From the NCBI RefSeq assembly GCF_023555385.1, contig NZ_JAJSED010000001.1, positions 1,488,001 to 1,552,000 of the forward strand: DNA of 64,000 nucleotides, in the 5' to 3' direction. Below the pieces are notes generated by a model. That model saw only the letters and a program-made list of their open reading frames with translations, made no database searches and had not been told where the DNA came from. Shown in pieces: positions 1 through 64,000 of this stretch. The DNA comes from Guyparkeria hydrothermalis. Lineage in GTDB: Bacteria > Pseudomonadota > Gammaproteobacteria > Halothiobacillales > Halothiobacillaceae. Positions within the stretch are counted from its first letter, which is position 1. Each line of letters starts with the position of its first letter. A program made the position numbers and the translations under genes.

Positions 1-641
1 CGCCGCAGGCCGCCGCCCTCGGCGCCCATCACCAGCGCGACCGGCTCACGGGCGAAGTCGCTCTCGTACAGGGACACCGGCCCCTCGCCCGCCGCACCCA
101 CGATCCACAGGCCGCGGGCCTTGAGGTCGGCGAGTGTGCGGGCGAGATTGGTGACCTGGATGAAAGGCAGTCGTTCGGCCGATCCGGCCGAGGTCTTGCG
201 GGCCGCCGCGGTGAGTCCGCAGGCGCGATCCTTGGGCGCGACCACCGCCAGCACGCCGGCCGCCTCGGCACCGCGCAGGCAAGCACCGAGGTTGTGCGGG
301 TCGGTCACACCGTCGAGCACCAGCAGCAACGGCGACTCGGTCGCCTCGTCGAGCAAGGCGATCAGGTCGTTTTCGTCACCGGCCTGGCTGAGCGCGACCC
401 GCGCGGCCACGCCCTGGTGGCGCAAGGGCTTGCCATCGCTGCGCAGCTTGTCGAACCAGGCGGGGTCACGGTTCTCCACCGGCACGCCGGATCGGTTGGC
501 CAGCGACTGCAGCCGGCGGGCACGCTTGTCGTCACGCGACGAGAGGACTACCTGTTCGACTCGCTCGGGGTGGTCGCGCAGGGCGGCCTCGATGGCGTGA
601 AAGCCGCCGATCCAGGTCAGCTCACCGGAGGGACGAGCCAT
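1..641 (-). CDS. rlmB: 23S rRNA (guanosine-2'-O)-methyltransferase RlmB, 3' end cut by window edge
   Basis: SPOUT-class RNA methyltransferase. In E. coli RlmB methylates the 2'-O of G2251 in the P-loop of 23S rRNA using S-adenosylmethionine. About 213 residues are visible of a family length near 245, so only the C-terminal end is missing. The N-terminal substrate-binding domain (WIGGFHAIEAAL) is followed by the SPOUT motif DGVTDPHNLGACLRGAEAAG and, at the edge, the SAM-knot motif MGAEGGGLRR. The gene starts 11 bp after the rnr stop on the same strand, the rnr-rlmB order known from E. coli, so the two are probably co-transcribed. No reading-frame damage is seen in the visible part. Confidence 0.93.
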   Translation of the reverse strand, partial: MARPSGELTWIGGFHAIEAALRDHPERVEQVVLSSRDDKRARRLQSLANRSGVPVENRDPAWFDKLRSDGKPLRHQGVAARVALSQAGDENDLIALLDEATESPLLLVLDGVTDPHNLGACLRGAEAAGVLAVVAPKDRACGLTAAARKTSAGSAERLPFIQVTNLARTLADLKARGLWIVGAAGEGPVSLYESDFAREPVALVMGAEGGGLR

Positions 642-60995: not shown

Positions 60996-61150
60996 CGTCA
61001 AAGCACGCTCCGGATTTAAATAGGGTTTTCCGCATATTTTCCGGTAAAGTGGCCTTAGAGAGCCTATGCCCGACTACTGCCCCGAGTGCCGCTTAACAGC
61101 GTGAACACTGCTGTGCTGCCTTGCTCGTCCACCGGATCCGAACACTTTCG

Positions 61151-63202
61151 ATGTCAGGTTTTACCTCACTGCCTCGTTCCTTCATCGCACTGCTCATCGG
61201 CATCGCTAGTAGCACCGCCCTCGGGGCAACCGCCTCCACACAGGCAGCACCAACATCCGCCACCTCCGAAGCGGACGCTCTGTGGCAGCAGGTCGAACGT
61301 GTTTATGGCGCGCTGGATGCCGACACCCTGAGCCACAAGCCGTGGCAGGCAGGCATCACACGCCTGTTCGACGACACGCCCTGCACGGCACCCGCACCGG
61401 AAAGGCTCGAAGCGGCCGCACACCGATCAACAGCTGATCGCCACGAGGCTGACCCAGGCCTGGCGCTGAATGCCTATGCCAGTTCGGGGTCCACCGCAGC
61501 CGAACCCTCGGAGCGGACCGATGGTTATGTGGAAGTGTCGTGGGACGTGCTCAAGGGAGGGCTTCTCGAATCCCGACACGAGGCGGAGCAGGCGCGACTC
61601 CGCGCGAGGCTCAGCGAAATACTCGGCGACATCAACGGCGAACGACGCGAACTCCGCTGCCTCCGCGGTCTGGTCCACCAGCGTTTCCTGTCCGACCGGC
61701 TGCGCTGGCTGACGCTGAAATACGACCTTATGCGGCAAGCCCATCAGGTCGAACGTCGTGGCTATTTCCAGGGCTGGGCACACCTTGATGAACTGATGGT
61801 CAGCGAGTCGGACCTTGTGCGCTTGCAAAGGGAGATGGAAACCAGTCACCGGGTGCTGGCCCTCGGCCATCCGGGATCGCCCCAATCTCCCCGGAACTTT
61901 CCTCTCGTCGACGTCGACCTGCAGGCGATACTGACCGCCATTCAGAACGACCAGCGCCTGGACGACCTTCGGCAAATCCAGCAATCCCTGGCCGGAGAGA
62001 GCGACAGGAGTTATCAAAACCGCCTGCGCCTGTTCGTGCGCCAGAACCTCGACCCGGATGTAAGACGCGACGTCTCGGTCGGAGCCCGATTCAGCATGCC
62101 CCTGGCGATGGGCGCCACAGCCCGGCGAGCAGCTCTGCGACACGAGCAGGAGGCCATCAGCGAGCGGGCAACACTGCAACGCTGGGAACGAGCAACATCA
62201 GCCCAAAGTGCCTACCTCGACTTTCAGGAACAGCTCGACAAGACAATCCGCCAGCACTACCGAGTGGGGCGAGCCTGGGAGAGACTTCGCCGGTCCATCA
62301 CCAGCCAGCGGCTCGGCCCACAGGAGGCAGAGATTCCCGTGGCCGTCACCCGTGCCCGCGCACTGGCCGACGCCAGGCTGGAAATGCTCGCCGCCCAAGA
62401 GGTGCTGTACCGGCGCCTGTTCGAGGTATTCCAGGCCGCCGGGGTACCAGTCCACGCCGCAGCACTGAAACCGGTTCACCTCCCCGGCACGACCGACCGG
62501 CGCCGCCTTGGAAGCCGCCTCATTTACGTATGGTCGGACTCGCTGAACCGGCTTCCCAACGAGCTTCTGGTGGACTTCCTGGTAGCGAAAGGAGTTCATC
62601 GAGCCGCGGTATCCGGTGGCGTGGGCGCGGACACCCGAAAACTCCGCGACCTCTACCTCCTGGCAGAAGAACAGGGCATCACGGTGTCGGTTTTGCGGGG
62701 CAGCCCGGAGTGGGCACTGCCCTCGGAGCATGAGCGCATCCTGCCGATGCTGCGACGTGACGCTGACCTGACCGGCAGAATCCATCTCGACATCGAACCG
62801 CATTCGCTGCCGGAATACGATGCGGATTCGCAGCGCGTTCTGTTGGGCTACCTCACGTTGATCGAACGGCTTCGCGCGACATCAGGCGCGGACACCCACA
62901 TCGCCGTCAGCGTCCCGACTCACTGGCCCGAGGCCATTTACGAGCAACTGACGCCACTAATCGATGAGGTGGTGGTCATGGCGTACGGGGTGACCGACCA
63001 CGAAAAACTCAGCGACCGCTTGAGCAATGCGTTGGCGACACTGCCCCCCTCGAAAACACGAATTGCCCTGCGCCCCTCCGACTTCCGCGACGAGTGGCAA
63101 CTCGAGCAATTCATTGAAGCGCTGGCAGCAGAGACCGGCATTACCCGATTCGCGATCCATGATCTCGACACCTACATGGGCCTGGGCGCTCAAACAAAAT
63201 GA
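61151..63202 (+). CDS. TolC-like outer membrane protein fused to a C-terminal TIM-barrel domain
   Basis: 683 aa with a Sec signal peptide (cleavage near ALGA, residue 26). Residues 100-430 look like an outer membrane efflux protein. Two repeated strand-helix units, YVEVSWDVLKGGLLESRHEA (126-145) and VSVGARFSMPLAMGATARRAA (308-328), begin long coiled helices, as in TolC. Residues 455-680 form a separate alternating beta/alpha pattern: IYVWSDSL, AAVSGG, TVSVLRGSPEW, IHLDIEP (D547, E549), HIAVSVPTHW, EVVVMAYG (607-613), RIALRPSDF, RFAIHDLDTY. That order of eight strands suggests a TIM barrel. DIE and MAYG recall GH18-type hydrolases, but this is not proven. It overlaps the adaptor gene (ATGA). 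Base composition looks less GC-rich than the rest. Confidence 0.75.
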   Translation: MSGFTSLPRSFIALLIGIASSTALGATASTQAAPTSATSEADALWQQVERVYGALDADTLSHKPWQAGITRLFDDTPCTAPAPERLEAAAHRSTADRHEADPGLALNAYASSGSTAAEPSERTDGYVEVSWDVLKGGLLESRHEAEQARLRARLSEILGDINGERRELRCLRGLVHQRFLSDRLRWLTLKYDLMRQAHQVERRGYFQGWAHLDELMVSESDLVRLQREMETSHRVLALGHPGSPQSPRNFPLVDVDLQAILTAIQNDQRLDDLRQIQQSLAGESDRSYQNRLRLFVRQNLDPDVRRDVSVGARFSMPLAMGATARRAALRHEQEAISERATLQRWERATSAQSAYLDFQEQLDKTIRQHYRVGRAWERLRRSITSQRLGPQEAEIPVAVTRARALADARLEMLAAQEVLYRRLFEVFQAAGVPVHAAALKPVHLPGTTDRRRLGSRLIYVWSDSLNRLPNELLVDFLVAKGVHRAAVSGGVGADTRKLRDLYLLAEEQGITVSVLRGSPEWALPSEHERILPMLRRDADLTGRIHLDIEPHSLPEYDADSQRVLLGYLTLIERLRATSGADTHIAVSVPTHWPEAIYEQLTPLIDEVVVMAYGVTDHEKLSDRLSNALATLPPSKTRIALRPSDFRDEWQLEQFIEALAAETGITRFAIHDLDTYMGLGAQTK

Positions 63203-64000
63203 AATTGAGAAACCGACGCAGCTACCTGTCTACGGCGCCAGACAGCCCGCCCCCCAAGGCGAATGGGCCGCGCATCACCCACTACATTTACCTGCTCTTG
63301 CTCCTCGGTGTGCTGGGGTACGTTGGCTATATCGCATGGCAGCGGCTGATGTTCATCGAAGCCAGGGGACAGGTCGAGGTGGAGCGGATTACGGTCAGCG
63401 CCAGCCGAGGCGGGAGAATCAGCCAGCTGCCTATCAGCGACGGCGAGCGCGTTCGCGCAGGAGAGTTGCTCGCCCGCATCGCCCCTCCTCAGGAATGCCA
63501 TGAGGAGAAAGACACCTACCAGCTGGACGAGCTACGCCTGGAGACATCGCTGACCGCCAGCGAGGTCGCTCTTCTGTCGGAACGACTCGCGACAATGCGA
63601 GCCACTTTGCTCGAACAAAATCGCCTGCGCCGCGCGCTGGAGATCGACACACGACTGGACAATCGCACTCGAGAGCTCAGTGACGCCATCGCATCGACCC
63701 AAGACGAGCTTGCCCGAAAACAAGCTCGTCTTGGGTTGCAGCAAGACCGGCTGGCACAGCTCGAACAACAACTCGCCAAACAACCACCGCCCCCCGATTG
63801 CCAACCGGAAATCATCGCGGCCCCAGTCGATGGGCGCATCCACCGTGTGGCGCGCAAGAACGCTGAAGTGGCGACGCGCGCGGAGCCTATTTTGACCCTC
63901 GTCCCCGATTCGCCGAAGGTCCGGATTAACGCCGTGCTACCCAACGAGGCCCTGGATCACCTGATGGTGGGTCAGACGGTTGCGATCACCTTCCCCGATG
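63199..64000 (+). CDS. HlyD-type membrane-fusion (adaptor) protein, cut by window edge
   Basis: The first 267 residues are visible. One N-terminal membrane helix (about 28-47), then a lipoyl half (VSASRGGRISQLPISDGERVRAGELLARI, 66-94), a long coiled-coil hairpin (about 105-193), the second lipoyl half (APVDGRIHRVARKNAEVATRAEPILTLVP, 208-236) and a beta-barrel start. Such adaptors link an inner-membrane pump or synthase to a TolC-like channel; Alg44 of alginate systems has the same periplasmic plan. Cys100 and Cys201 sit at the two junctions of hairpin and lipoyl halves and could form a disulfide. A 16-bp perfect inverted repeat lies in the hairpin-coding part. The reading frame stays open to base 64000. 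Confidence 0.85.
   Translation, partial: MKLRNRRSYLSTAPDSPPPKANGPRITHYIYLLLLLGVLGYVGYIAWQRLMFIEARGQVEVERITVSASRGGRISQLPISDGERVRAGELLARIAPPQECHEEKDTYQLDELRLETSLTASEVALLSERLATMRATLLEQNRLRRALEIDTRLDNRTRELSDAIASTQDELARKQARLGLQQDRLAQLEQQLAKQPPPPDCQPEIIAAPVDGRIHRVARKNAEVATRAEPILTLVPDSPKVRINAVLPNEALDHLMVGQTVAITFPD
63697..63736. repeat. 16-bp perfect inverted repeat inside the adaptor gene
   Basis: ACCCAAGACGAGCTTG (63697-63712) is the exact reverse complement of CAAGCTCGTCTTGGGT (63721-63736), with an 8-base spacer. It encodes the descending coiled-coil segment around TQDELARKQARLGL. The transcript would carry a very stable hairpin inside the coding region. Confidence 0.9.

What the first reader, a model, noticed from the sequence alone, without database searches (positions are those of the whole stretch)
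63697..63736. Very stable hairpin inside a coding sequence
A 16-bp perfect inverted repeat with an 8-base loop is far longer than expected by chance and lies in the middle of a gene. Part of it may follow from the repetitive coiled-coil code, yet the exact match extends over third positions. It could slow ribosomes, set the ratio between adaptor and downstream gene products, or mark a recombination or regulatory site.
Basis: seen in the sequence. Interest (0 to 1): 0.5.

Follow-up and report, generated by a model that had tools for sequence, protein, structure and literature searches.

The report
Perfect hairpin inside a membrane-adaptor gene
A perfect 16-base-pair hairpin really does sit inside a bacterial membrane-adaptor gene, but it is most likely the scar of a one-off DNA-copying slip (an inverted copy of a neighbouring stretch) rather than a regulatory signal.

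Summary
Window 63697-63712 and 63721-63736 are perfect 16-bp inverted repeats around an 8-nt loop, predicted to fold at -36 kcal/mol (z -8.9). They lie inside a 329-codon HlyD-type adaptor gene of a four-gene, probably polysaccharide-export operon. It is the longest hairpin inside coding sequence in a 474-kb sample of this genome; the next has 13 bp. Synonymous shuffling gives 0.027 such hairpins per 397 kb, and those are built from preferred codons. This one is built from rare codons: 0 of 725 shuffled hairpins of 14 bp or more were as rare.

None of 9 distinct homologues (24-34% identity) has the pairing. The arms are not a repeated element, and there is no Rfam hit at gathering score and no terminator tract. 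Arm 1 has ordinary codons for this gene; arm 2 is a run of rare codons. This fits an inverted copy of arm 1 over arm 2 by short-range template switching. That is inferred, not shown: there is no ancestral sequence. Regulation is unsupported but not excluded.

The parts
63697..63712 (+). arm 1 of the inverted repeat; likely template (source) arm, codons 167-172 of the HlyD-type gene
   Evidence: perfect complement of 63721-63736; codon adaptiveness of codons 167-171 is 0.45 against a gene mean of 0.53
63713..63720 (+). 8-nt loop CCCGAAAA
63721..63736 (+). arm 2 of the inverted repeat; likely inverted copy, codons 175-180 (CAA GCT CGT CTT GGG TTG), all rare codons
   Evidence: codon adaptiveness 0.17-0.18; 6-codon windows this low are 0.2% of genome windows; inverted copies of coding DNA are that low in 11% of cases, ordinary coding windows in 0.4%
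63199..64000 (+). HlyD-type membrane-fusion/adaptor gene, 329 codons, runs on to about 64188 beyond the window
   Evidence: Pfam HlyD_3 E 8.6e-17; ORF in L002:1501-2490
61121..63202 (+). upstream gene of the same operon (693 aa, no Pfam or NCBIfam match); its stop overlaps the HlyD start (ATGA)
   Evidence: same gene order in L015

Best explanation
The hairpin is the footprint of a short-range template-switch mutation (quasipalindrome or sequence-directed mutagenesis type). During replication the polymerase briefly used the nascent or sister strand of the neighbouring stretch (63697-63712) as template and wrote its reverse complement over 63721-63736 without changing length, so the frame stayed open and the coiled-coil segment tolerated the new residues. 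The perfect stem is then a by-product, with no selected role in ribosome pausing or regulation. Shown: the perfect repeat, its excess over synonymous chance, the codon asymmetry, the absence of pairing in (distant) homologues, the lack of length change. Inferred: the copying event, its direction and its neutrality.
For: Perfect, uninterrupted 16-bp pairing with a short 8-nt spacer. Chance hairpins in synonymous shuffles use preferred codons: none of 725 shuffled hairpins of 14 bp or more from 2,945 shuffles had codon adaptiveness as low as the real 0.276, the lowest being 0.345. Arm 2 is the rare-codon arm: ordinary coding windows are as poor as arm 2 in 0.4% of cases, inverted copies of coding windows in the same register in 11%; arm 1 looks like a source (87% of sources reach its value, 19% of copies do). 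0 of 9 distinct homologues has the stem; pairs at the same register are 2 to 7 of 16. The segment has the same length as in the homologues, so no insertion. Precedent: in yeast REG2 a 5-bp repeat became a perfect 16-bp coding repeat in one inferred template-switch event, and 39 coding genes were affected (PMC8604942: abstract, passages and one section read). The same mechanism acts at quasipalindromes in E. coli (PMC7202029, abstract and start of introduction read).
Against: No close relative is available, so the ancestral sequence and the single event are not shown. The homologues at 24-34% identity are too distant to reconstruct what arm 2 was. Given the peptide, the perfect stem has only one synonymous spelling, so selection for the stem would force the same rare codons; codon rarity argues against chance, not against selection. 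Part of the rare-codon run (codons 173-174) lies in the loop, and the gene as a whole has lower GC3 (0.74) than the genome sample (0.83). Residues L178 and L180 in arm 2 match homologues at a conserved leucine pattern, so a wholesale overwrite had to be lucky or partial. The genome sample shows only a slight excess of 6-7-bp coding hairpins (+5% and +9%) and no clear one at 8-12 bp, so there is no strong genome-wide sign of the process.
Confidence: 0.62

Rival explanations
1. Chance: the stem arose by ordinary point mutation and codon choice, and was noticed because many windows were read.
For: Synonymous shuffles give 0.027 coding hairpins of 16 bp or more per 397 kb, about 0.14 for the whole coding genome by extrapolation; 290 of 361 genes have at least one place where a 16-bp hairpin is possible without changing the protein.
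Against: 65 of 92 such shuffled hairpins come from one site in another gene, and all 92 use more preferred codons (adaptiveness 0.43 or more against 0.276 here). At this site the chance is 3e-9 to 3e-7, with 11 permissible sites (several of them shifts of the same stem) in the gene; 3,000 recodings of the gene reached at most 12 bp.
Confidence: 0.2
2. Selected RNA hairpin: the stem slows ribosomes or protects the mRNA and so tunes co-translational membrane insertion or operon stoichiometry.
For: Very stable (-36 kcal/mol), on the coding strand, accompanied by rare codons; the only perfect spelling of this peptide was used.
Against: 0 of 9 homologues has a stem there, though all are distant; the gene order is the same in L015 without it; ATGA overlaps at both gene ends can couple translation instead; no Rfam family at gathering score.
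Confidence: 0.13
3. DNA-level element: cruciform, protein-binding palindrome, recombination or mobile-element end, or uptake signal.
For: A 16-bp arm with an 8-nt spacer is in the size range studied as cruciform-forming in E. coli (PMC6060812, passages read).
Against: The 12-base core occurs only in the two arms in the whole 2.39-Mb genome, fewer than its backward control; no insertion relative to homologues; inside a gene.
Confidence: 0.05

Closest known systems
Template-switch arm homogenization in coding genes (S. cerevisiae, e.g. REG2; PMC8604942)
   Same: Perfect coding inverted repeat of 16 bp with a short spacer in one lineage, absent in others, frame kept, residues changed.
   Different: There the ancestral state is known from sister strains; here no close relative is held.
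Quasipalindrome-associated template-switch mutation of E. coli (thyA, lacZ reporters; PMC7202029)
   Same: Bacterial process that turns an imperfect into a perfect inverted repeat.
   Different: Demonstrated experimentally there; inferred from one sequence here.
[quoted passage not shown]
   Same: Explains coding inverted repeats by sequence-directed mutagenesis.
   Different: Concerns repeats of 6-9 bp; this one has 16.
Coding palindromes in Nematomorpha mitochondria (PMC6649704; start of abstract in the search listing only)
   Same: Perfect inverted repeats inside protein-coding genes.
   Different: Those are numerous and up to 284 bp; here a single short one.

Membership tests
Template-switch (quasipalindrome) mutation product | Perfect or near-perfect inverted repeat with short spacer | tested here: met
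   16 of 16 pairs, spacer 8 nt
Template-switch (quasipalindrome) mutation product | One arm shows a clustered multi-nucleotide change relative to a close ancestor | not testable with these tools
   no homologue above 34% identity found
Template-switch (quasipalindrome) mutation product | One arm has the statistics of an inverted copy, the other of ordinary coding DNA | tested here: met
   arm 2 falls at 0.4% of source windows and 11% of copies; arm 1 fits a source; cannot separate copying from selection
Template-switch (quasipalindrome) mutation product | Absent from other lineages | tested here: met
   0 of 9 distinct homologues, all distant
Functional conserved RNA structure in coding sequence | Pairing conserved with covariation in homologues | tested here: not met
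   2-7 of 16 register pairs in 9 homologues, longest perfect stem in the segment 7 bp; only distant homologues were available
Intrinsic terminator | GC-rich stem followed by a run of T | tested here: not met
   no T run after the stem on either strand; the pattern scan does not list the 16-bp stem
Repeated element, uptake signal or mobile-element end | Copies elsewhere in the genome | tested here: not met
   arm core found only twice in 2.39 Mb, the two arms
HlyD-type periplasmic adaptor (host gene) | HlyD domain match above curated cut-off | tested here: met
   HlyD_3 62.3 bits against cut-off 22.2

The most novel reading that the evidence does not exclude
A lineage-specific selected RNA hairpin in the coiled-coil part of an adaptor gene, born by a single template switch and kept because it pauses translation while the membrane adaptor folds or is inserted.
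Probability: 0.08. Interest if true: 0.45.

Novelty: new member of a known kind. Interest (0 to 1): 0.2.

Why it matters
If it is a template-switch scar, it is a natural bacterial example of a single copying error rewriting up to six adjacent codons of a gene that stays open, of the size reported for yeast REG2. Such events can be mistaken for selected RNA structure or positive selection. It does not change the picture of the operon.

Tried and rejected
Rejected: chance from coiled-coil coding; repeated or uptake element; intrinsic terminator (the terminator scan found 3 sites against 0.9 expected, one on the minus strand touching the arms with a 6-pair stem that is not this stem); known RNA family (only a below-threshold mir-187 match, 17.5 bits against 58, a chance hairpin match); insertion or foldback assembly artefact (segment length equals that of homologues).

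Led nowhere: search for close relatives in genus (11 genomes; apart from the own genome 4 of 10 gave weak matches, E 3.1e-5 to 8.2e-4), order (27), two further orders (2 and 11 genomes), class (369), phylum (398), plasmids and genome contigs. Peptide compatibility does not discriminate: 2,437 sites in 361 genes could hold a 16-bp hairpin synonymously. Paper search for the operon gave nothing specific; 0 of the 8 papers listed mentions TackOD1.

Dropped rows: L014 was left out of the homologue comparison because only residues 1-120 match, short of the hairpin; L015, L017 and L018 repeat L010, L011 and L012, and L039, L040 and L041 are the same genome places as L010, L011 and L013; all were counted once. 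Searches ended in script errors: the part printed before the error is used, and the rest was redone. Gene boundaries in the background sample come from my own simple ORF scoring, not from a gene finder; the HlyD gene entered the shuffles as its 801-base part inside the window.

Full report
What is there. Folded as RNA with ten flanking bases on each side it gives -36 kcal/mol against -13 (sd 2.58) for shuffles, z -8.9, with one further G-U and one C-G pair at the base. It covers codons 167-180 of an open frame that starts at 63199 and runs beyond the window to 329 codons. The protein is an HlyD-type membrane-fusion adaptor (HlyD_3, E 8.6e-17).

Surroundings. The gene is the second of four genes in a row: a 693-aa protein without Pfam or NCBIfam match, the adaptor, a TackOD1 plus GGDEF-like protein, and a family 2 glycosyltransferase. 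The stop of gene 1 overlaps the start of the adaptor, and the stop of the adaptor overlaps the start of gene 3, each as ATGA. In homologous locus L015 the four genes stand in the same order with the same kind of overlap. Function as an exopolysaccharide export operon is an inference from these domains.

Is it more than chance? I sampled 473,901 bases of the same genome, window included. Inside genes it is the longest perfect hairpin with loop 3-30; the next has 13 bp, while intergenic hairpins reach 17 bp. In 361 genes (397,380 bases), observed counts at arm 11, 12, 13 and 16 are 4, 3, 1 and 1; 4,596 shuffles of synonymous codons within genes give 6.07, 1.91, 0.55 and, for 16 or more, 0.027. 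Scaled to the whole coding genome, about 0.14 would be expected, so mere existence somewhere is only mildly surprising. The composition is what speaks against chance: in 2,945 further shuffles, 65 of the 92 hairpins of 16 bp or more came from one other gene, all 92 had codon adaptiveness of 0.43 or more, and among 725 of 14 bp or more none was as low as the real one (0.276). For this gene, 3,000 recodings never exceeded 12 bp, and the chance of the perfect stem at this site given the peptide is 3e-9 with genome codon usage or 3e-7 with the gene's own usage.

Anatomy of the pairing. First codon positions pair with first positions, and second with third. With a fixed peptide there is just one synonymous spelling that pairs perfectly. 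Codons 175-180 (CAA GCT CGT CTT GGG TTG) are all non-preferred; the 6-codon windows starting at codons 173-175 are the three poorest of 324 in the gene, and the window 175-180 is at the 0.2% level of the genome sample. Arm 1 is ordinary for this gene. If one takes coding windows and writes their inverted copy in the same register, copies have median adaptiveness 0.31 against 0.71 for sources (11,276 stop-free windows); arm 2 (0.18) falls at 11% of copies and 0.4% of sources, arm 1 (0.45) is reached by 87% of sources and 19% of copies. Hence arm 1 is the likely template and arm 2 the copy.

Comparison with relatives. The gene is not in the other ten genomes of the genus held (only weak matches, E 3.1e-5 or worse, in 4 of 10) nor in the other 26 genomes searched of the order (E 1e-15 limit). 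Relatives were found in 5 other genomes of 369 in the class, in 4 genome contigs records of which 1 was new, in 1 further genome of an order search of 11 and in 3 further genomes of a phylum draw of 398. Nine distinct full-length homologues (24-34% identity) were compared: longest perfect hairpin anywhere in each gene 6-8 bp, pairs at the same register 2-7 of 16, no length difference in the segment. The stem is therefore not a family feature; whether it is shared by close relatives is unknown, since none is held.

Mechanism. The best-supported account is a short-range template switch in replication that wrote an inverted copy of arm 1 over arm 2. The literature gives direct parallels: 39 protein-coding genes changed by template switching in S. 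cerevisiae, among them REG2, where a 5-bp repeat became a perfect 16-bp repeat (PMC8604942; abstract, passages and the section on nonsynonymous substitutions read); E. coli quasipalindrome mutation (PMC7202029; abstract and start of introduction); creation of perfect RNA stems by template switching (PMC8794818; abstract and start of introduction); and an excess of short inverted repeats in prokaryotic coding DNA, explained in the same way (Ladoukakis and Eyre-Walker 2008 as cited in PMC4060949; passages read; PMC6060812, passages read, reports that the same study found fewer such repeats in E. coli genes than in its control). In this genome sample the excess of short coding hairpins over shuffles is slight (6 bp: 2,834 against 2,705 sd 53; 7 bp: 857 against 784 sd 26) and not clear at 8-12 bp, so the process leaves little general trace here. 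Selection for the stem cannot be excluded, because it would force the same codons; it simply has no positive support: no pairing in homologues, no Rfam match at gathering score, no terminator tract, no copies elsewhere, and gene overlaps that may already couple translation.

Verdict. Observation confirmed; regulatory reading unsupported; probably a mutational scar of a known kind. Interest is low to moderate.

Noticed in passing
window 61121-64000 and L008:1-2983: Four-gene operon (693-aa protein of no known family, HlyD adaptor, TackOD1 plus GGDEF-like protein, GT2) whose adaptor gene was not found in the other genomes held of its genus and order, with the same gene order in L015; looks like a sporadically distributed exopolysaccharide export system.
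   Followed up: partly
L022:5703-5746 and L030:13330-13367: Perfect 17-bp hairpins outside the genes called, without a T tract inside the stem, the longest in the genome sample.
   Followed up: no
L036:1856-1887 and L032:11381-11412: Two intergenic 13-bp hairpins share the core TTTTCTTG...TGTCCAAGAAAA, possibly a dispersed repeat or operator.
   Followed up: no
L032:2438-4387, about base 1030 of the gene: A gene whose peptide favours a 16-bp synonymous hairpin so strongly that 65 of 92 shuffled long hairpins fell there, though the real gene has none of 13 bp or more.
   Followed up: no
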